A stretch of DNA of 64,000 nt from Hyphomicrobiaceae bacterium (GTDB taxonomy: Bacteria; Pseudomonadota; Alphaproteobacteria; Rhizobiales; Hyphomicrobiaceae). Positions 32,068 to 41,948 of the stretch are shown piece after piece. A model generated the notes under the pieces. That model saw nothing but the letters and a program-made list of their open reading frames with translations, made no database searches and was not told the DNA's origin. Positions within the stretch are counted from its first letter, which is position 1. Every line of letters starts with the position of its first letter. The stretch is from positions 310,001-374,000 of the forward strand of contig JALHOW010000005.1 in NCBI GenBank assembly GCA_022842785.1, given 5' to 3'. Made by a program: the position numbers and the translations under genes.

Positions 32068-32186
32068 CCGCTTCGCGCGGCATCCGGCGTCCGCGCCTTG
32101 AGCATGATCACCCCGGTTCGCCGTGCTGCGCGGCCATCCGGCGTGTGATGCAGCTCTGCACTCCAGGGGGAAACCGGATCCAGCCG

Positions 32187-32801
32187 ATGATGCGGCTCAT
32201 ATACGCCCTGCTGAGCCTCGCGATCGCCGGTCTCATCGGCGGCTTCGTCGCGTTTGCTGTCAGCGCCACGACGGAGCCCGAACTGCCGGCGCCGAAGGCG
32301 GATGCTATTGTCGTTGTCACCGGCGGCGAGGACAGGATCAGCGCAGCCCTCGGCCTCCTGCGCGAAGGCGGCGGCCAGCGGCTGCTCATCTCCGGCGTCA
32401 ATCCGCGTACCAGTGCGGCCGCTATCCGCGATCAGGCCGGTGAGGGGCGCCAGCTCTTCGAATGCTGCGTCGATATCGGGCGCGAAGCGAGCGATACGAT
32501 CGGAAATGCCGAGGAGACGCGCGACTGGGCAGCGACGCACGGCTATCGCACGCTGATCGTCGTGACCTCGAGCTATCACATGCCACGCACGCTGACCGAG
32601 TTCGCGCGCGCCATGCCGCACATGGATTTCGTCGCGCATCCGGTCGTCTCGCGGCACATGCGCGACACGCCTTGGTGGCAGCACCCGAGGTCGCTGCGCC
32701 TACTGGCGAGCGAGTACGTTAAGTTCATCGCCGCCATAACGCGTCTCGGCTGGGCGCGTGCCCAGGATGTCCTCGGCACGCCCCGTACTGGAGCAGCCTA
32801 A
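32187..32801 (+). CDS. YdcF family (DUF218) membrane-anchored protein
   Basis: 204-residue DUF218/YdcF-like protein with an N-terminal membrane helix (IYALLSLAIAGLIGGFVAFAV). The Rossmann-like core has ADAIVVVTGGEDRISAAL, the conserved acidic EASDTIGNAEETRDW and the VVTSSYHMPRTL motif. The family may act on envelope precursors, but the reaction is not established. It commonly follows ftsEX in Hyphomicrobiales, often with plsC behind; plsC is absent here. Start 32187 is preferred over 32145 because it lies close to the membrane helix. The TAA stop lies inside palindrome A, which begins in the last sense codon. Confidence 0.85.
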   Translation: MMRLIYALLSLAIAGLIGGFVAFAVSATTEPELPAPKADAIVVVTGGEDRISAALGLLREGGGQRLLISGVNPRTSAAAIRDQAGEGRQLFECCVDIGREASDTIGNAEETRDWAATHGYRTLIVVTSSYHMPRTLTEFARAMPHMDFVAHPVVSRHMRDTPWWQHPRSLRLLASEYVKFIAAITRLGWARAQDVLGTPRTGAA

Positions 32802-32874
32802 AGCGTCGGACCTTAAATGCGACCCGCACCCGTGCCGATCTCAAAGTTTCATTTGAGGTCCAAAGACGCTTTAG
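32798..32874. repeat. Bulged palindrome A (pair A-B)
   Basis: Outer stem CTAAAGCGTC (32798-32807) with GACGCTTTAG (32865-32874); bulge AAA at 32862-32864 in the right arm; inner 12-bp stem 32808-32819 with 32850-32861, all pairs complementary except one G-U if transcribed; loop about 30 bases. It supplies the stop codon of the ydcF-like gene. Confidence 0.85.
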
Positions 32875-32886
32875 AGACATAGTATC

Positions 32887-32962
32887 CTAAAGCAACTTTG
32901 GACTTGAAATTCACTCCCCGCCTAGCCTCGAACCGAGGTGAATTTCAAGTCCGTTGCTTTAG
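32887..32962. repeat. Bulged palindrome B (pair A-B)
   Basis: Outer stem CTAAAGCAAC (32887-32896) with GTTGCTTTAG (32953-32962); bulge TTT at 32897-32899 in the left arm; perfect 15-bp inner stem GGACTTGAAATTCAC (32900-32914) with its complement 32938-32952; loop 23 bases. It starts 12 bases after element A and is in opposite orientation, so the two bulges face each other. Confidence 0.88.
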
Positions 32963-33142
32963 CGCATGTTGCAACGCCGCGGCGTTATCCAAAGCCCGAG
33001 AAGTTCCGGTCACCGCCTGTGGACGCCACAGGGTAGCTGACCTATAACGCCGGTGATGCATGTCGCCGCCTGTTTGATGCCGTATGCGAGGAGCTGCGCG
33101 ACCGACTGCAGCGCGCTTTCAAGCGACGTCCGGAGCTGAAAG
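32963..33142. other. Region between palindrome B and the fur/mur gene
   Basis: Holds a 14-bp perfect palindrome AACGCCGCGGCGTT at 32973-32986, about 155 bases before the regulator start. No promoter boxes or known Fur-, Mur- or Irr-box are evident. With the palindromes, the full gap from 32802 to 33142 has no other gene. Confidence 0.4.
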
Positions 33143-33589
33143 GTGGGCATTACCGAAGTGGCTCGTGAACAGGCCAGCAGAATCGAGAGGCTTTGCGCCG
33201 AGCACGGCTTGCGCATGACGGCGCCGCGTCGCGTGATTGCCCGCGTTCTTTCGGAAGCTTCCGATCACCCCGACGTGGATGAAGTTTATCGACGCGTGAG
33301 TGCCGTCGATCCCCGCATTTCGCTCTCCACCGTCTATCGCACCGTTGGTCTTCTGGCCCGCAAGGGAATCATTGCGCGCCACGACTTCGGTGCTGGCCGT
33401 ATGCGCTTCGAGGAAGCCTCGGGCCAGCACCACGATCATCTCATCAATGTCGAGACCGGCGACGTCATCGAGTTCCGCAACGAGGAAATCGAGCGCCTGC
33501 AAGAGCGCGTTGCGAAGGAACTCGGCTTCGAGCTGGTCGGCCATCGACTGCAGCTCTTCGGCGTGCCGATCAAGCGGCGGCGCGGCTAG
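33143..33589 (+). CDS. Fur family transcriptional regulator (Fur/Mur type)
   Basis: 148-residue metal-responsive repressor. Winged-helix part: HGLRMTAPRRVIARVL, HPDVDEVYRRV and SLSTVYRTVGLL; the metal-binding hinge reads HHDHLINVETGDVIEF. It lacks the C-terminal CxxC zinc site, as do alphaproteobacterial Fur proteins that act mainly as manganese regulators (Mur). It does not show the haem motif of Irr. The GTG start at 33143 has GGAG 7 bases upstream. No metal transporter gene is adjacent. Iron versus manganese cannot be decided from sequence. Confidence 0.9.
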   Translation: MGITEVAREQASRIERLCAEHGLRMTAPRRVIARVLSEASDHPDVDEVYRRVSAVDPRISLSTVYRTVGLLARKGIIARHDFGAGRMRFEEASGQHHDHLINVETGDVIEFRNEEIERLQERVAKELGFELVGHRLQLFGVPIKRRRG

Positions 33590-33634
33590 ACCGCGGCCTC
33601 AGCCTGCGGCATCCTGCGGCCCATATCCGCCCGG

Positions 33635-33901
33635 CTACTTGCAACGGGACGAGCAGCCGGTCGCCGCCATTCCTGTTGCAGTTCCTTGCTTCGCCATGCA
33701 GCGATTGAAGCACTCAGGCCCTTTTCCTTTTTGCTTACCCGCGCCCTTCTGCTTGCCCCAGCCCTTACCCTTCTTCTTCTGGACTGGGATGAGTGACTGT
33801 TCCGGCGCGGCCATTTGAAAGCCGATGGGCGCCGATCTGATCGCGGGAGCGCTACCCAATACAAACAGCAAGACACTCGCAATGACGAGCCAAGTGCGCA
33901 T
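33635..33901 (-). CDS. small secreted Lys/Gly-rich protein with twin CX3C motifs
   Basis: 88 residues, no family recognised. A clear signal peptide (MRTWLVIASVLLFVLGSAPA) is followed by a strongly basic low-complexity stretch at about 42-61 (repeats of KGKG, KQKG) and a C-terminal module C64-x3-C68 ... C83-x3-C87. The start is supported by GGAGG 5 bases upstream, so it is likely expressed despite its size. It converges with the fur/mur gene. A periplasmic metal-binding, nucleic-acid- or polyanion-binding role is conceivable but unproven. Confidence 0.7.
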   Translation of the reverse strand: MRTWLVIASVLLFVLGSAPAIRSAPIGFQMAAPEQSLIPVQKKKGKGWGKQKGAGKQKGKGPECFNRCMAKQGTATGMAATGCSSRCK

Positions 33902-34024
33902 GGACGCCTCCGATGAAAACTCGCAAGTATGAACTTGAGTAACCAAGCGCACATACTGCGCGCACCCCTTTGAGGGCGTCAATCGGGACGAACGAGGAGG
34001 TTGGCTTCAGGTGTCGGCAGCGCC

Positions 34025-34795
34025 CTACGACACTTCCAGCGCATCACCGACCGCCAGCTCGCCGCCGCCGATAACCTTGGCATAGATACCCAGGTCACCG
34101 TGCCCCCAGGTGCGCCGGATAAGCGTGGGCAGCCCCATGTCACGCGCACCGGTCTGCGGATCGACGTTGGTGGCTTCGCAGCGCACGGTCCGGTCAACAA
34201 TGCTCGTGCGCACGCCACCGAGCGTCAGCTCGCGGCCGACCCAGCCGAGTTCAGCCCACGGCTCGATGCCATCAACGTAGACGTTGGCCCGAAATCGCAG
34301 CGGATCAACGGGACGGCCAAGAACGCGCGCGAGATCGCGCACCGACGCAAGATTGACGACGTGCAGGCATTTGAGGGCAACATCCGAGAAGCTGTGCCCC
34401 GGTGCGAACACGACCTTCGGCGGGCCGCGCAGCTCCGTCTTCATGTAGGCCGCGAAGAACTGCTCGATCATCTTGCGACCGAGCGGCGTCGTGAGCTGGC
34501 CGCGCGCCACTTGCTTGCCAGCGCGGTTCACCGTCAGCGTTTCCGTGGCATCGTCGAAGGTCGTGACGAGCGTTGCGAGGCGCTCATCGCGCATGAGCAT
34601 GAGGAATGTGATCTTCGGCAGATGGCGCGGGTTGTCCGCATCGAAGCGGCCGGGTCCGTTTTCGATGGCGTAAGCGCGATCGAACGGCATCGTGCCGCCC
34701 GGCTCGAGCGTCACCCGCTCCCGCGCTTCGGGACTGAGACCTTTGACGGCATAGCGATAGAGCGCCGTGACAGTCGGCGTCGCAGATCCGGTCAT
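34025..34795 (-). CDS. MOSC domain-containing protein
   Basis: 256 residues with an N-terminal MOSC_N beta-barrel (VTALYRYAVKGLSPE, GTMPFDRAYAIENGP) and a C-terminal MOSC domain (CLHVVNLASVRDLARVLG, RANVYVDGIEPWAELGWVG). The Cys of DRTVRCEATNVDP, proposed to handle molybdenum cofactor or sulfur in mARC/YcbX/YiiM relatives, is present. No 2Fe-2S domain is attached. It follows an alpha/beta hydrolase gene by 21 bases on the same strand and is probably co-transcribed with it. Confidence 0.9.
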   Translation of the reverse strand: MTGSATPTVTALYRYAVKGLSPEARERVTLEPGGTMPFDRAYAIENGPGRFDADNPRHLPKITFLMLMRDERLATLVTTFDDATETLTVNRAGKQVARGQLTTPLGRKMIEQFFAAYMKTELRGPPKVVFAPGHSFSDVALKCLHVVNLASVRDLARVLGRPVDPLRFRANVYVDGIEPWAELGWVGRELTLGGVRTSIVDRTVRCEATNVDPQTGARDMGLPTLIRRTWGHGDLGIYAKVIGGGELAVGDALEVS

Positions 34796-34816
34796 GCTCT
34801 CAGCCTCCGCGGCGCG

Positions 34817-35485
34817 TTATTCGGCCTCGCGCTTCGCCTTCTCGATTTCGACCATGCGGCGATCGACGTACGAGCCGACGATTTCGCTCAGCTCCTCGTT
34901 CTTGTCCTCGAAGAAGTGGCCGGCGCCCGCAATGGTCGTGTGCTCGATCTTGATGCCCTTCTGGGTCTTGGTCTTGCGTGACATCTCCTCGACGGCGGCC
35001 GGCGGCACAACCTTGTCACGTTCACCGGAGATCACGAGGCCCGACGACGGGCACGGCGCGAGGAACGAGTAGTCGTAGAGGTTCGCCGGTGGGGCGACGC
35101 AGATAAAGCCGTCGATTTCCGGCCGGCGCATGAGCAGCTGCATGGCAATCCATGTGCCGAACGAAACGCCGGCGATCCAGCACGAGCGGCTGTCCACATT
35201 CTGCAGCTGCAGCCAGTCGAGCGCGGAAGCCGCGTCGGAGAGCTCTCCGGGGCCGTTGTCGAAGTAGCCCTGGCTGCGGCCGACGCCGCGGAAGTTGAAC
35301 CGCAGGACCGAGAAGCCGCGCTCCTGGAAGGTGTAATAGAGGTGATAGACGATCTGATTGTTCATCGTCCCGCCGAACTGCGGGTGCGGATGCAGGATCA
35401 GCGCGATCGGGTTCTCGCTGCGCCCTTCGTGGTGATAGCGGGCTTCGAGACGGCCAGCCGGGCCGTTGATCATGATTTCGGGCAT
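34817..35485 (-). CDS. alpha/beta hydrolase (dienelactone-hydrolase-like)
   Basis: 222-residue hydrolase. The oxyanion segment is LILHPHPQFGGTMNN, the nucleophile Ser is in GVSFGTW, and the catalytic His in AGAGHFFEDK near the end; the acid is probably the Asp of SGERDKVVP. This small 'HPHPQFGG' type is conserved in alphaproteobacteria and frequently lies next to the suf gene cluster, as here. Substrate unknown. The gene is divergent from the iscR-suf operon. Confidence 0.88.
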   Translation of the reverse strand: MPEIMINGPAGRLEARYHHEGRSENPIALILHPHPQFGGTMNNQIVYHLYYTFQERGFSVLRFNFRGVGRSQGYFDNGPGELSDAASALDWLQLQNVDSRSCWIAGVSFGTWIAMQLLMRRPEIDGFICVAPPANLYDYSFLAPCPSSGLVISGERDKVVPPAAVEEMSRKTKTQKGIKIEHTTIAGAGHFFEDKNEELSEIVGSYVDRRMVEIEKAKREAE

Positions 35486-35846
35486 GGGACCTTTCGGGCT
35501 CTCGGCACTTGTGGCGGGCTATCGTCCGGGCTCAGGCGAGCCCTGCGCTTGCGCGTCCGTATGCACACGATGCGGCCCAGATCGGCGTCTTGAGGCTCGG
35601 CATCGAAAATACTTGACTCGCTCGCTCGGAATTTCCATATACAGGTCAGGATTTAGAAGCGCTCCAAACTGAGCGTGCCGTACCGGGCCTGTGTCGCGCG
35701 TCTCTTAGCACGTAACCATGCCTCGAATGCAAGGTCGTTGTGGCCGCGCGGCACCGCCCCTTGTGGCGATCGAGCCCAGGGGACGCGAGCTGCGGCCGCG
35801 CGGGTACGCCTCGGTATTGGACAGGTTGCGTGAGACGAGTGGGGCC
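35486..35846 (+). other. Divergent control region of the Fe-S assembly operon
   Basis: 361 bases between the hydrolase and the Rrf2 regulator. Contains the candidate promoter at 35613-35641. The open frame upstream of the regulator start (from 35718) has no family similarity and is considered leader. Nothing else recognised. Confidence 0.5.
35613..35641 (+). promoter_or_regulatory. Candidate promoter / IscR-type site of the suf operon
   Basis: TTGACT (35613-35618), 17-base spacer, CATATA (35636-35641). The sequence ATACTTGACT over the -35 resembles the left half of a type 1 IscR site, so autoregulation by the first gene product is plausible; the right half is not well conserved. Confidence 0.45.
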
Positions 35847-36320
35847 ATGGAACTGAACACCAAAGGGCGGTACGCCGTGATGGCCATGGCGGATCTTGCC
35901 AGCCAGGACGTGCGGGACGCGACGCCGCTCCCGGCCATCGCCGAGCGCCAGCAGATCTCCATCGCCTATCTCGAGCAGATTTTCATCCGTCTGCGTCGTG
36001 CCGGCCTCGTCGAGAGCGCCCGCGGCCGCTCCGGCGGCTACCGGCTCGCCCGACCGGCCAGCGGGATCGTGATCGCCGACATCATGTCCGCCGTCGAAGA
36101 GGACACGCGCATGACGCGGTGCCGGGGCGAGGACGGCGCGCCCTGCCTGCCCGGGCATCGGTGCCTCACGCACAATCTCTGGGAAGCCCTCGGCGCCCAG
36201 ATCGCCGGCTTCCTAACCACTGTGACGCTGCAGGATGTGCTCGACGGCGTGCCGACGCCACGCGGTGCGTCCACCGTCGACGCTTTCATAAGCCCTCCCG
36301 AGGCGCGGACGGCCCGATGA
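35847..36320 (+). CDS. iscR: Rrf2 family transcriptional regulator, IscR-like
   Basis: 157-residue Rrf2 winged-helix regulator heading the Fe-S assembly operon. MELNTKGRYAVMAMADLA and GLVESARGRSGGYRLARP are diagnostic; C92, C100 and C106 (RCRGEDGAPC, GHRC) should bind a [2Fe-2S] cluster, with Cx7Cx5C spacing instead of the Cx5Cx5C of E. coli. It presumably represses the operon when clusters are plentiful. ATG 35847 is the start of the family-conserved region. The next gene overlaps its stop by 4 bases (ATGA). Confidence 0.9.
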   Translation: MELNTKGRYAVMAMADLASQDVRDATPLPAIAERQQISIAYLEQIFIRLRRAGLVESARGRSGGYRLARPASGIVIADIMSAVEEDTRMTRCRGEDGAPCLPGHRCLTHNLWEALGAQIAGFLTTVTLQDVLDGVPTPRGASTVDAFISPPEARTAR

Positions 36321-37459
36321 CCACCGAGCGCACATATCTCGACTGGAATGCGACCGCGCCACTGCTTCCCGAGGCGCGGGCAGCCATCGAGCGCGCGCTC
36401 GACGTCCACGGCAATCCCTCCTCCGTTCATGGCGAAGGGCGCCGGGCACGCGCCGTCGTCGAGACCGCGCGTGAGCAGGTTGCGGCCCTTGTCGGCGCAC
36501 GCCCGTCCGAGGTGGTCTTCACGAGCGGCGCGACAGAATCGTGCGGCACTGTGATTGCCGCGCCCTGGCAGGCCATTCTGCTCGCGGGCGTCGAGCACGA
36601 CGCCGTGCTGCAGCCGGCCGATCACGTGACTGGCCAGCGCATTTCGCTCGACGTGGGCCACGATGGCCGCGTCGATCCGGCTAACGTGGCGGCGAAAATC
36701 CACACGGCCACCGCCGCACATGCTGCCGGCCGCGTTCTCGTAGCCCTTCAGCTTGCGAACAACGAGACAGGCGTGCTTCAGCCGGTCGCAGACGTGGCCG
36801 CTGCCGCCCGCGAGGCCGGTGCACTGCTCTTCACCGATGCAGCCCAAGCAGCTGGCCGCATTCCCGTCGATTTCGCAGCGATCGGCGCGGATTTCATGGC
36901 CATCTCAGCGCACAAGCTCGGCGGCCCCAAGGGCATCGGCGCACTCATCATACGCGACGGCGTGGAACTGCCGGCATTGATCCGCGGTGGCGGCCAGGAG
37001 CGGCGGCGCCGCGGTGGGACCGAGAACATCCCCGGCATAGCGGGCTTCGGCGCCGCGGCCGAGACCACGCGCAAGACGCTCGGCGAGCGCGACCGGATCG
37101 CTCAGTTGCGCGATCGCCTGGAGGCAGGCCTTATCGAGCTGATGCCGGATGCCCATATTATGGGTTCGGGCGCGCCACGACTGCCGAATACGACGTGCGC
37201 CGCACTTCCCGGCCACACCGCCGAGACGCTGGTCATCCGCTTCGACCTCGCCGGCATCGCCGTGAGCGCGGGCGCGGCCTGCTCGGCCGGCAAGATCGGC
37301 GCGAGCCACGTTCTCATGGCCATGGGACGCGACGAGGCGACCGCGCGGTCAGCCATCCGCATCAGCATCGGCCCGACGACCGCCGCCCGCGACATCGACC
37401 GCTGCCTTGCTGCCTGGCGCGAGATCGCCGCCGATCCGCGCGCACGCACGGCAGCTTGA
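36317..37459 (+). CDS. cysteine desulfurase (IscS/NifS type)
   Basis: 380-residue PLP enzyme (class V aminotransferase fold) releasing sulfane sulfur from cysteine. PLP lysine K200 in SAHKLGGPKG; catalytic Cys C322 in SAGAACSAGK, on a loop lacking the long IscS C-terminal LRDLSP motif, closer to the NifS/IscS-like proteins found at the head of alphaproteobacterial suf operons. It overlaps iscR by 4 bases. A second, SufS-type desulfurase lies later in the same operon. Confidence 0.93.
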   Translation: MTTERTYLDWNATAPLLPEARAAIERALDVHGNPSSVHGEGRRARAVVETAREQVAALVGARPSEVVFTSGATESCGTVIAAPWQAILLAGVEHDAVLQPADHVTGQRISLDVGHDGRVDPANVAAKIHTATAAHAAGRVLVALQLANNETGVLQPVADVAAAAREAGALLFTDAAQAAGRIPVDFAAIGADFMAISAHKLGGPKGIGALIIRDGVELPALIRGGGQERRRRGGTENIPGIAGFGAAAETTRKTLGERDRIAQLRDRLEAGLIELMPDAHIMGSGAPRLPNTTCAALPGHTAETLVIRFDLAGIAVSAGAACSAGKIGASHVLMAMGRDEATARSAIRISIGPTTAARDIDRCLAAWREIAADPRARTAA

Positions 37460-37504
37460 ACGAGAAACAACAGAAACGACACGATCAGGAGCACGGAGAA
37501 CAAG

Positions 37505-39037
<1,533 letters not shown>

Positions 39038-39251
39038 CTGACGCCGATGAACACTGTTCTGTTGCGAGCTTTCAGGAAAAATTCATGTGCGAAAGCCTGC
39101 CAATTGAACCTGGAATGTGTAGGATGGCGACATTCGGCCACAGGTCGGACCAAAAAAGATGGTGTCGGGTCGAGGGGCCCATCACCACGTCGTGCTGGGA
39201 GCGAAGCGAGGGGGCGCCAATGCGGTGGCTGCCCAACCTGAGGAGCAAGCA

Positions 39252-39530
39252 ATGAGTGACGCAGCTGGATTCGGTCAGGTGACGATGAGGGCACGGCTCA
39301 CACGCGAGATTGGGGAGAGCGAGTGCAAACAGCGCAACGCCTTGTCGATCAAGCGGCCCGGCCTCACGCTTCGCCAGGGGTCCCAGGTGACGGTCATCGA
39401 GACATTGGAGCAGGGCCAGGCCTTCCTCGTGGAGTTCGGGCACAAGTCGCCGGACGCGTGTGATTGGCTCGGTGTGCTCTATCCCTCGGAGATCGAGCTG
39501 GAAGGGGCGAGCCCACAGCAGGCCGCCTGA
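39252..39530 (+). CDS. small protein of unknown function inside the suf operon
   Basis: 92 residues, not recognised. Strong ribosome site GAGGAG 6 bases before the ATG supports translation. The C-terminal half (about 37-85: RPGLTLRQGSQVTVIETLEQ, AFLVEFGHKS, LGVLYPSEIEL) reads like a small SH3-type beta barrel and faintly recalls DUF4926; this is a guess. Two cysteines, C25 and C70. It lies between sufB and sufC, an interruption not standard for suf operons, preceded by a 214-base gap with AT-richer patches. Confidence 0.7.
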   Translation: MSDAAGFGQVTMRARLTREIGESECKQRNALSIKRPGLTLRQGSQVTVIETLEQGQAFLVEFGHKSPDACDWLGVLYPSEIELEGASPQQAA

Positions 39531-39699
39531 GCCTCAAAGACCTGAGCGAGCTGACGACACGGGGGTGCCGCGGCAGCGGCGCTGAAGGATGAGTTTTTGC
39601 GGCTCGACGGGCCGCGGAAGACGCAGACGTAAGATGGACCACCTGACGCCACCGGGCGCGGGCGGCTGAGCCAAGAAGAACCAGGAGACCCGTACGGCC

Positions 39700-40455
39700 A
39701 TGCTCGAGATCAAGAACCTGCACGCCTGCATTGCCGACGACGGCACCGAGATCCTGCGCGGCATCGACCTCGTCATCCCCAAGGGTGAGGTGCACGCCAT
39801 CATGGGCCCGAACGGCTCCGGCAAGTCGACGCTCGCCTACGTCCTCGCCGGCCGCGACGACTACGAGGTTACCGAGGGCGACATTCTCTGGAATGGCGAA
39901 TCGATCCTCGAAATGGGCCCCGATGAGCGCGCCGCCAAGGGCGTGTTCCTGGCCTTCCAGTACCCCATGGAAATCCCCGGCGTCGCGACCATGACCTTCC
40001 TGCGGGCGGCCCTCAACGCCGTGCGCAAGAAGCGCGGGGAGAAGGAGCTGACGACACCCGAGTTCCTGAAATTCGTGCGCGCAAAGGCTGCCGAGCTCGG
40101 CGTCAGCGATGAGATGCTGAAGCGCCCGCTCAATGTCGGCTTCTCCGGCGGTGAGAAGAAGCGCATGGAGATTCTGCAGATGTCCGTGCTGGAGCCGACG
40201 CTCTGCGTGCTCGACGAGACGGACTCTGGCCTCGACATCGACGCCATCCGAATCGTCTCCGAGGGCACGACCAAGCTGCGCGGCCCGGATCGCGCCATGC
40301 TGGTCATCACGCATTACCAGCGCCTGCTGAACTACATCGTGCCCGACAAGGTGCACGTCCTTGCCAAGGGCCGCATCCAGAAGACCGGCGGCAAGGAGCT
40401 GGCGCTCGAACTCGAAAAGTCCGGCTATGCCGATTTCACCGGCCAGGCCGCGTGA
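39700..40455 (+). CDS. sufC: Fe-S cluster assembly ATPase SufC
   Basis: 251-residue ABC-type ATPase of the SufBCD scaffold. Walker [11 protein letters not shown]-loop [13 protein letters not shown] (SufC-specific), signature [14 protein letters not shown] and Walker [13 protein letters not shown]. Same strand as sufB and sufD. Two palindromes (C and D) fill the gap to sufD. Confidence 0.98.
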
Positions 40456-40457
40456 GG

Positions 40458-40533
40458 CTAGTGCGATGATCGAGAAATTCGCCAGTGCTCGCCGCCGCCC
40501 TGTGAGCGAATTTCTCGATCTGAATCGCACTAG
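40458..40533. repeat. Bulged palindrome C (pair C-D)
   Basis: Outer stem CTAGTGCGAT (40458-40467) with ATCGCACTAG (40524-40533); bulge TGA at 40521-40523 in the right arm; perfect 15-bp inner stem GATCGAGAAATTCGC (40468-40482) with 40506-40520; loop 23 bases. It begins 3 bases after the sufC stop. Confidence 0.9.
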
Positions 40534-40546
40534 CAGGACAATGCCT

Positions 40547-40624
40547 CTAGTGTCCCTCTTGATTGCGAAGTTCGCTCGGGACACCAGCATTGACGCGCGG
40601 CGAACTTCGCAATCGGGACACTAG
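40547..40624. repeat. Bulged palindrome D (pair C-D)
   Basis: Outer stem CTAGTGTCCC (40547-40556) with GGGACACTAG (40615-40624); bulge TCTT at 40557-40560 in the left arm; perfect 15-bp inner stem GATTGCGAAGTTCGC (40561-40575) with 40600-40614; loop 24 bases. It lies 13 bases after element C in opposite orientation and ends one base before the sufD ATG. Confidence 0.9.
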
Positions 40625-40625
40625 A

Positions 40626-41948
40626 ATGAATGTTACGACACTGAAGACCAAAGCCGAAGGCCAGCTGCGCGAGCAGTTCGATGCCGCAGCAGGAAGCCTG
40701 CCGGGCACCGGCTGGGTTGGCGCGCTGCGCGCCCGCGCTATGGACGCCTTTGCAGCCGATGGCTTGCCGAGCCGCCGCGTCGAGGAATGGAAGTACACCG
40801 ACCTGCGTGAGCGCCTGCGCGACGTGCCGGCCCCTGCATCGGCGACGTCCAAGCCCGTCAGCGCTGCAGACATCGATAGCGCCCTCGGGCCACTCGCTGG
40901 CCTCGACGCCGAGCGCATTGTTCTCGTCGATGGCGTCTACAGTGCCGAGCTCTCGAAGGTCACGGCTGAAGCCACGGTCATCGAGCTGATGTCGCTCGCG
41001 GCCATGCTCAAGAAGGCGCCGGCGTGGCTCGAAGGTAAATTCGCCTCGGACAGCGGCGTCGTTGTCGCGCTCAACACCGCCTTCATGAGCGACGGCGTGC
41101 TGCTCAAAGTGCGTAAGGATCAGGATCCTGGCCGGCCGGTGCTTCTCGTGCACGCGCGCGCCGCGGCTCAGTCAAGCGCCGTTGCCGTGCGCAATGTCGT
41201 GAGCCTGGAAGCCGGCGCGAAACTCACGCTGATTGAGGCGCACGTCGCGCTCGACAGCGCGGCGAGCGGTGCGCTCGCCAACGTCGTCACCGACGTCACA
41301 CTCGGCGATGGCGCCACCTGCGACCACATCAAGAGCCTCGTCGATGCGGCCGGCTCGACGCATCTCGCAACCTGGAACACGAAGCTCGGCAAGGACGCGA
41401 CCTTTCGCGGCTTCCAGCTCACTGCGAGCCCGGCGCTTGCGCGCAACGACATCAACATCACGTTCGACGGCGAGGGCAGCAAGCTCGACCTCTCCGGAGC
41501 CTTTCTCGCGCGTGGCGCTGAGCACATCGACACGACGCTCGTCGTCGACCATGCCGTGCCGCATTGCGAGAGCCGCGAGCTCTTCAAGGGCGTGCTCGAT
41601 GGACGTGCCCACGGCATCTTCCAGGGCAAGATCATCGTGCGCCCCGATGCCCAGAAGACCGACGGCAAGCAGATGTCGCAGGCACTCATGCTCTCGCCGG
41701 ACGCGCAGTTCTCCTCGAAACCCGAGCTCGAGATCTACGCCGACGACGTTGTTTGCGGCCACGGCGCGACCTGTACCGAGATCGATGCCGACTTGCTCTT
41801 CTACTGTCGCTCGCGCGGCATTCCGCCGGACATCGCGCGCGCCATGCTGACGGAGAGCTTCATCGGCGAGGCCGTCGAGAAGATCGAGAACGAAGCGGTG
41901 CGCGAGGCGCTCGGGACGCTGGCCATTGGATGGCTGCGCGCCGGATAA
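40626..41948 (+). CDS. sufD: Fe-S cluster assembly protein SufD
   Basis: 440-residue SufB paralogue forming the SufBC2D scaffold. Blocks: PSRRVEEWKYTDLRERL at the N-terminus, VVDHAVPHCESRELFKGVLDG, IFQGKIIVRPDAQKTDGKQM, KPELEIYADDVVCGHGATC and FYCRSRGIP near the end. The ATG at 40626 fits the family start, but only GGGA at the base of palindrome D precedes it, so no normal ribosome site exists; translation may depend on the hairpin or on reinitiation. An in-frame TTG at 40563 inside the palindrome is a less likely alternative. Confidence 0.95.
   Translation: MNVTTLKTKAEGQLREQFDAAAGSLPGTGWVGALRARAMDAFAADGLPSRRVEEWKYTDLRERLRDVPAPASATSKPVSAADIDSALGPLAGLDAERIVLVDGVYSAELSKVTAEATVIELMSLAAMLKKAPAWLEGKFASDSGVVVALNTAFMSDGVLLKVRKDQDPGRPVLLVHARAAAQSSAVAVRNVVSLEAGAKLTLIEAHVALDSAASGALANVVTDVTLGDGATCDHIKSLVDAAGSTHLATWNTKLGKDATFRGFQLTASPALARNDINITFDGEGSKLDLSGAFLARGAEHIDTTLVVDHAVPHCESRELFKGVLDGRAHGIFQGKIIVRPDAQKTDGKQMSQALMLSPDAQFSSKPELEIYADDVVCGHGATCTEIDADLLFYCRSRGIPPDIARAMLTESFIGEAVEKIENEAVREALGTLAIGWLRAG

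What the first reader, a model, noticed from the sequence alone, without database searches (positions are those of the whole stretch)
32798..40624. Family of paired, bulged palindromes with conserved architecture but different stem sequences
Four elements (32798-32874, 32887-32962, 40458-40533, 40547-40624) occur as two pairs. Each has a 10-bp outer stem starting CTA and ending TAG, a one-sided 3-4 nt bulge at the same position, an inner stem of 12-15 bp with rough pattern GAYYnnRAARTTCRC, and a 23-30 nt loop. Arms differ between elements yet stay complementary within each, including one G-U. In both pairs the first element has its bulge on the right arm and the second on the left, spaced 12-13 nt, giving a BIME-like unit. 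This suggests selection on structure, for example mobile REP-like units moved by a RAYT-type transposase, or RNA-level elements.
Basis: partly seen in the sequence, partly recalled or inferred. Interest (0 to 1): 0.78.

Follow-up and report, generated by a model that had tools for sequence, protein, structure and literature searches.

The report
IS630-type mini-transposon built from hairpins
The paired bulged palindromes are copies of a short "hitch-hiker" transposon that jumps into the sequence CTAG, very likely using an IS630-family enzyme, and each of its two ends has grown a folded-back copy of itself that is kept intact for reasons not yet known.

Summary
The four elements are real and exactly as described. 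They are two copies of a roughly 165-bp mobile unit: two bulged hairpins, bulges facing each other, 12-13 nt apart. The genome holds at least 32 pairs and 8 single hairpins. The model matched 56 of 103 genomes of the family (record titles: Hyphomicrobium and relatives) and 0 of 24 from other families of the order. In one relative the whole pair recurs, mostly 96-99% identical, at different sites. A nested insertion (one pair inside another) and filled/empty sites show insertion into CTAG with TA on both sides, which explains the "CTA...TAG" ends. RAYT is not supported: 20 of 22 element-bearing genomes have no Y1 transposase. Instead, IS630-family elements in three relatives carry terminal repeats matching the outer arms (up to 23 of 25). 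The two hairpins correspond to the two ends of that IS. These are therefore IS630-type MITEs. A family A donor was not found, and the window's own genome has no IS630 gene. New here: each end carries an inverted, 3-4-nt-offset copy of itself, absent from ten IS ends examined, conserved almost like the terminal repeats while loops drift; arms change in compensating pairs. Why the hairpins are kept is open.

The parts
32798..32962 (.). MITE copy, family A (165 bp): two bulged hairpins and a 12-nt spacer, read as C-TA-[AAGC...GCTT]-TA-G
   Evidence: end structure shown by a nested family A copy in L246
32798..32874 (+). hairpin A1, 10 bp + 3-nt bulge on the right arm + 12 bp, loop 30 nt
32875..32886 (.). 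12-nt spacer
32887..32962 (+). hairpin A2, 10 bp + 3-nt bulge on the left arm + 15 bp, loop 23 nt
40458..40624 (.). MITE copy, family B (167 bp): two bulged hairpins and a 13-nt spacer, read as C-TA-[GTG...CAC]-TA-G, between sufC (39700-40455) and sufD (40626-41948); absent at the corresponding place in the four genus relatives examined
   Evidence: genes named
40458..40533 (+). hairpin B1; its outer arm resembles the IS630 end upstream of the transposase gene
40534..40546 (.). 13-nt spacer
40547..40624 (+). hairpin B2 (4-nt bulge); its outer arm resembles the IS630 end downstream of the transposase gene

Best explanation
Each pair is one copy of a miniature inverted-repeat transposable element (MITE) of the IS630/Tc1-mariner type. 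Shown: the unit that moves is the pair; it enters CTAG and TA ends up on both sides; family B outer arms match the terminal repeats of IS630-family elements in relatives, one hairpin per IS end. Inferred: an IS630 transposase acting in trans cuts at the two outer ends and pastes the unit into CTAG; family A uses another, unfound IS630-type enzyme; the enzyme has been lost from the window's genome. Each end also carries an inverted copy of itself, offset by a 3-4 nt insertion between an outer and an inner box, so that the end forms a bulged hairpin. My preferred reading of that part, clearly weaker, is that the inner arms and their pairing are kept because copies able to fold (or to bind extra transposase) at the ends transpose better, while loops drift freely; the offset marks the inner arms as different from true ends so that cutting happens only outside.
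For: Mobility: 21 copies of 164-166 bp at different sites in relative G006 (the search required the CTAG ends, the flanks differ apart from two look-alike cases), 92-100% and mostly 96-99% identical. In the genus, the family B pair of the window is absent from the corresponding place in G001-G004. Target: in L246 a family A pair sits inside a family B pair as ..GAGTCACA-C-TA-[AAGC...GCTT]-TA-G-CGAGG.. where other B pairs read CACACTAGC. Filled/empty comparisons: 7 of 13 (9 insertion sites) have exactly four extra bases in the empty site: CTAG, CTAA, CTGG, CGAG, CCCG, CCCC, TCAC; four of these seven differ from CTAG by at most one base. CTAG is rare here (0.42 per kb). Unit integrity: bulges face the spacer in 106 of 109 distinct pairs; spacer 13 nt in 86 and 12 nt in 13. 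Transposase: IS630-family ISs in G006 (1174 bp), G029 (1175 bp) and G003 (1167 bp) with C-TA..TA-G ends; Pfam DDE_3 and NCBIfam transpos_IS630 at 274-288 bits, cut-off 100. Their six ends match MITE outer arms at 23, 20, 18, 21, 20 and 16 of 25 (shuffled maxima 18, 18, 17, 19, 18, 17). In G006 and G029 the B1-like end lies upstream and the B2-like end downstream of the transposase gene. Inner arms: substitution rate 0.041 against 0.031 for outer arms, 0.298 for loops and 0.361 for spacers in 89 of 97 family B pairs, although no inverted copy stands next to ten IS ends.
Against: No IS630 transposase homologue in G000, G001, G002 or G004, all bearing many elements, so the enzyme is inferred from relatives. 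IS presence and element presence across 103 genomes are only weakly associated: 15 of 21 with a homologue carry elements against 41 of 82 without, Fisher p = 0.09. No IS with family A ends was seen. Of ten IS ends compared, five (one of G003, both of G031, both of G009) do not beat their shuffled maximum. Six of 13 filled/empty comparisons differ from +4 bases (-2, 3, 3, 5, 9, 10), and 21 of 109 pairs have outer ends other than CTAG/CTAG or CTAA/TTAG, some of them misdrawn boundaries; in six the outer CTCG (or CGAG) is mirrored on the spacer side, which a plain target duplication does not predict.
Confidence: 0.87

Rival explanations
1. REP/BIME elements moved by a RAYT (TnpA_REP) transposase acting on single-stranded hairpins.
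For: Paired hairpins in opposite orientation resemble BIMEs; PMC3733652 (section 16 read) describes double palindromic terminal repeats around RAYT-like genes.
Against: No Y1_Tnp in the own genome; none in 20 of the 22 element-bearing genomes. TA stands on both sides of the inserted unit, which HUH transposition does not make (recalled).
Confidence: 0.03
2. The hairpins are kept because they work as RNA: in transcripts they protect, process or terminate mRNA, so each copy is under selection in place.
For: Very stable RNA folds, z about -9; both window copies lie between co-oriented genes, one between sufC and sufD. Raw single-change cells favour G-T over A-C, 47 to 26.
Against: Counted as distinct changes G-T and A-C are equal (20 and 21 types); 25 of the 47 G-T cells are one change. 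The suf copy is absent from the four relatives. Rfam has no match in the window at its gathering thresholds.
Confidence: 0.1
3. The compensating changes are mutational, not selected: during replication one arm templates repair of the other (template switching at quasi-palindromes), so arms homogenise each other.
For: Double changes are almost all complementary, 111 against 1 in family B, many of them transversions; even the terminal CTAG is mirrored (CTCG with CGAG).
Against: Correction alone would not hold arms at 3-4% change while loops reach 30%, and should erase the 3-4 nt bulge, which persists in nearly all pairs. 52 of the 111 cells are two changes carried mostly by G006 copies (25 of 31 and 25 of 30 rows). 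Family A has few doubles, 3 complementary and 1 not.
Confidence: 0.3
4. All four arms are simply transposase-binding sites; complementarity follows because each arm is the same site in inverted orientation.
For: Outer arms are IS630 terminal repeats and inner arms have nearly the same sequence and conservation.
Against: Independent sites would also give many non-complementary double changes; only 1 of 112 is so in family B and 1 of 4 in family A.
Confidence: 0.25

Closest known systems
RUP of Streptococcus pneumoniae, thought to be mobilised by IS630-Spn1 (PMC2229807 and PMC3049150, passages read)
   Same: Small non-coding repeat in over 100 copies, terminal repeats like those of an IS630 element, TA target.
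   Different: 107 bp whose terminal repeats pair with each other; here each end is its own bulged hairpin, two per element, with both IS ends doubled.
IS630 family insertion sequences (PMC2170065 passages read; the title of Tenzen and Ohtsubo 1991, TA in CTAG, seen in its reference list)
   Same: TA duplication, preference for CTAG, terminal repeats matching the outer arms.
   Different: Ten ends of five IS630 copies in relatives (G003, G006, G009, G029, G031) lack an inverted copy: at most 9 of 15 and 6 of 10 bases, against 12-15 of 15 and 10 of 10 in the window's pairs.
REP/BIME with RAYT; TIRtrons with double palindromic TIRs (PMC3733652, passages and section 16)
   Same: Paired palindromes in opposite orientation, sometimes dimeric.
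   Different: No Y1 transposase; DDE-type target duplication.
Correia/NEMIS, ERIC and CIR repeats (table and passages in PMC2229807)
   Same: Small, palindromic, TA at the termini; CIR is alphaproteobacterial and carries GANTC.
   Different: Not described as two hairpins in the passages seen; sequences not compared here.
Stowaway MITEs of plants (recalled only)
   Same: Tc1/mariner-type MITEs with TA targets and strong folding.
   Different: Eukaryotic; not compared here.

Membership tests
MITE | Short repeat with terminal inverted repeats | tested here: met
   164-167 bp units, outer arms inverted
MITE | Presence/absence at corresponding sites with target duplication | tested here: met
   nested insertion
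IS630-type MITE | TA duplication, CTAG preferred | tested here: met
   exact; consistent in 7 of 13 comparisons
IS630-type MITE | Terminal repeats match a full-length IS630 element (family B) | tested here: met
   G006, G029, G003: five of six ends above shuffles
IS630-type MITE | Terminal repeats match a full-length IS630 element (family A) | tested here: inconclusive
   No such IS seen in the loci that were scanned
IS630-type MITE | Mobilising transposase present in the same genome | tested here: not met
   Absent from G000; present in G003, G006, G029
IS630-type MITE | Transposase acts on these ends | not testable with these tools
   needs biochemistry
REP/BIME with RAYT | Y1 (HUH) transposase in the genome | tested here: not met
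REP | 20-40 bp palindrome with GTAG or CGTC tag (as in PMC3733652) | tested here: not met
   76-78 nt hairpins beginning CTAG/CTAA
CIR | Sequence similarity to CIR repeats | not tested
   No CIR sequence held; only a review passage seen

The most novel reading that the evidence does not exclude
A DDE (IS630-type) mini-transposon that has evolved foldable ends, absent from the IS630 elements examined, because the hairpins themselves promote its transposition, for example by extruding at replication forks so that the transposase meets paired ends, with the 3-4 nt offset telling true ends from their mirror copies. This would be a single-strand-sensitive trick, known from HUH elements, in a cut-and-paste element.
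Probability: 0.2. Interest if true: 0.8.

Novelty: new variant of a known kind. Interest (0 to 1): 0.52.

Why it matters
It gives a large natural series (56 of 103 genomes of one bacterial family) of non-autonomous elements in which the ends of a mariner-like transposon were doubled into hairpins and then held under strong constraint while loops and spacers drift. Why MITEs out-copy their parents is a long-standing question; here a feature absent from the IS630 elements examined is conserved, so its effect on transposition can be measured directly. It also shows how compensating changes that look like RNA evidence can arise in a mobile DNA element.

Tried and rejected
RAYT/Y1 transposase: searched and absent. 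IS5/IS427 group (DUF4096), which also likes CTAG (recalled): found in 3 of 11 element-bearing genomes, with no matching ends in those three loci. A supposed autonomous copy in G002 (two hairpins 905 bp apart) turned out to be two ordinary pairs around a nitrile hydratase alpha gene (named). Terminal CTAG as a plain 4-bp duplication: does not fit family A (CTAA...TTAG) and was replaced by TA inside CTAG. RNA-level selection: no G-U strand bias once repeats of one change are counted once. Integron attC-like sites: considered because structure outlives sequence; dropped once the DDE-type target appeared, not tested separately. The distant blastn of the family A region against plasmids gave nothing. 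Literature: 7 paper searches; judged from titles and the starts of abstracts in their listings, none describes such repeats in Hyphomicrobium; the library holds open-licence papers only.
Full report
WHAT IS THERE. The four elements are confirmed at the given coordinates. They form two pairs, 32798-32962 (family A, ends CTAA...TTAG) and 40458-40624 (family B, ends CTAG...CTAG). Each hairpin has a 10-bp outer stem, a one-sided bulge of 3 or 4 nt on the side facing the partner, an inner stem and a loop of 23-30 nt. In a hand-picked 28-sequence alignment from the own genome, 95.9% of 699 cells pair and the covariation score is 0.620 against 0.209 for shuffles and at most 0.112 for slid partners. 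The measure of further pair types did not exceed shuffles (35 against 36.3), and the structure was drawn from the same sequences. The family A pair lies between a DUF218 gene and a Fur-family gene, the family B pair between sufC and sufD.

HOW MANY AND WHERE. Patterns found 22 places with family A ends (reversed-pattern control 3) and 33 with family B ends (control 35, so the count alone proves nothing; it is the listed sequences that show the architecture) in the own genome. A covariance model found 72 distinct hairpin places by my count of the rows: 32 pairs and 8 singles (150 of 3540 candidates scored, so a lower bound). Among 60 genomes, 22 of 36 of the same family match (the own genome included) and 0 of 24 from other families of the order (stricter filters). 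In the family 56 of 103 genomes and 19 of 25 genera match (stricter filters). The name of the window's own genome was not given.

THE PAIR IS THE MOBILE UNIT. In G006, 21 copies of 164-166 bp lie at different sites (the search required CTAG ends; flanks differ apart from two look-alike cases), and its listed places are 92-100%, mostly 96-99%, identical. Over all loci fetched by then, 109 distinct pairs were collected: 106 have bulges facing the spacer (one of the three exceptions is a misdrawn boundary), and the spacer is 13 nt in 86 and 12 nt in 13. The family B pair of the window is absent from the corresponding place in G001-G004, and the sequences printed for the family A place show no pair there either, though its exact junction could not be drawn.

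TARGET SITE. In Hyphomicrobium sp. CS1BSMeth3 (L246) a family A pair is inserted inside a family B pair..GAGTCACA-C-TA-[AAGCAACGG...GACGCTT]-TA-G-CGAGGCTATGATT.., where other family B pairs read CACACTAGC. So the target is CTAG and TA stands on both sides afterwards. Comparing filled with empty sites gave 13 comparisons from 9 insertion sites. Seven have exactly four extra bases in the empty site (CTAG, CTAA, CTGG, CGAG, CCCG, CCCC, TCAC); four of these differ from CTAG by at most one base. The others have -2, 3, 3, 5, 9 (ending in CTAG) and 10, in diverged intergenic DNA. A tenth site, in G004, shows CTAA in the empty genome but its flank is too diverged to count, and two more sites of the own genome (the family A pair of the window and C5:403708) could not be aligned closely. 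Against a simple picture, six family B pairs have an outer CTCG or CGAG that is mirrored on the spacer side while the other outer end is CTAG. CTAG occurs 0.42 times per kb in the window.

THE ENZYME. RAYT is out: no Y1_Tnp in the own genome and none in 20 of the 22 element-bearing genomes of the 60 searched (G007 and G013 have one and two matches). A first IS630 search looked discouraging, with DDE_3 in 3 of 11 element-bearing genomes, but those loci gave the answer. G006 carries a tandem dimer of a 1174-bp IS, and G029 and G003 carry ISs of 1175 and 1167 bp, all of form C-TA...TA-G, with terminal repeats like the outer arms. The proteins match DDE_3 and NCBIfam transpos_IS630 at 274-288 bits against a cut-off of 100. 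Best matches of ten IS ends to 70 distinct MITE outer arms: G006 23 and 20 of 25, G029 18 and 21, G003 20 and 16, G031 15 and 15, G009 16 and 13; shuffled maxima 17-19. So five of ten ends exceed their shuffles. The B1-like end lies upstream and the B2-like end downstream of the transposase gene in G006 and G029, so the two unlike hairpins of a pair correspond to the two unlike ends of the IS. Homologues of this transposase occur in 21 of 103 genomes and not in G000, G001, G002 or G004. Elements are in 15 of those 21 and in 41 of the other 82 (p = 0.09; 9 of 11 with strong hits, p = 0.06). I read this as old copies outliving their enzyme, which is inference. No family A donor was found.

THE HAIRPINS. 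Ten ends of five ISs (G003, G006, G009, G029, G031) have no inverted copy within 130 bases: at most 9 of 15 and 6 of 10 bases match, against 12-15 of 15 and 10 of 10 in the window's pairs. So the inner arms look like a feature of the small element. Yet they are conserved: in 89 of 97 family B pairs (8 divergent ones dropped) substitution rates are 0.031 outer arms, 0.041 inner arms, 0.115 bulges, 0.298 loops, 0.361 spacer; in 12 family A pairs 0.015, 0.020, 0.056, 0.099, 0.224. Changes on both sides of a pair are complementary in 111 of 112 cells of family B, where 26 doubles are expected from independent arms, and in 3 of 4 of family A (expected 0.67). 52 of the 111 are two changes carried mostly by G006 copies. 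Single changes give G-T in 47 cells and A-C in 26, but 25 of the 47 are one change; as distinct types they are 20 and 21. So no particular strand is clearly favoured and RNA-level selection has no firm support. What keeps the arms paired, selection for folding at transposition or arm-to-arm templated repair, is not decided; constraint on arm sequence argues that repair alone is not enough.

COMPARISON. It works like, and by most tests is, an IS630-type MITE; RUP with IS630-Spn1 is the closest known case (passages). The TA-in-CTAG preference of IS630 is in the title of Tenzen and Ohtsubo 1991, seen only in a reference list. The doubled, bulged ends are the new variant. In the listings of seven paper searches I saw no description of such repeats in Hyphomicrobium, in open-licence papers only.

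Noticed in passing
40455-40628: The family B pair ends one base before the ATG of sufD and separates it from the GAGG at the sufC stop, which in G002 lies 5 nt before the ATG; an SD-like GGGA inside the outer arm is now 7 nt upstream of the ATG.
   Followed up: partly
32798-32801: The inserted CTAA supplies the TAA stop codon of the upstream DUF218 gene (32145-32801); relatives end this gene differently.
   Followed up: partly
family B consensus; 40458-40624: The family B consensus holds four GANTC (CcrM-type, recalled) sites in 167 bp against 1.16 per kb in the window; family A has one. IS630 ends of G006 and G029 also contain GATTC.
   Followed up: partly
L299 327-2673 (G006 contig C84): Two IS630 copies stand head to tail sharing one TA, forming an end-to-end junction; the transposase reading frame ends in the TAG of the terminal CTAG.
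   Followed up: no
L013 1501-1576; L019 1501-1572: Single hairpins that look like hybrids of the left half of one pair member and the right half of the other, as if the middle of a pair had been deleted.
   Followed up: no
L056 1501-1664; L277 2482-2646: Rare pairs with both bulges on the same side; L056 mixes arms of different types, suggesting that hairpins can be reshuffled between elements.
   Followed up: no
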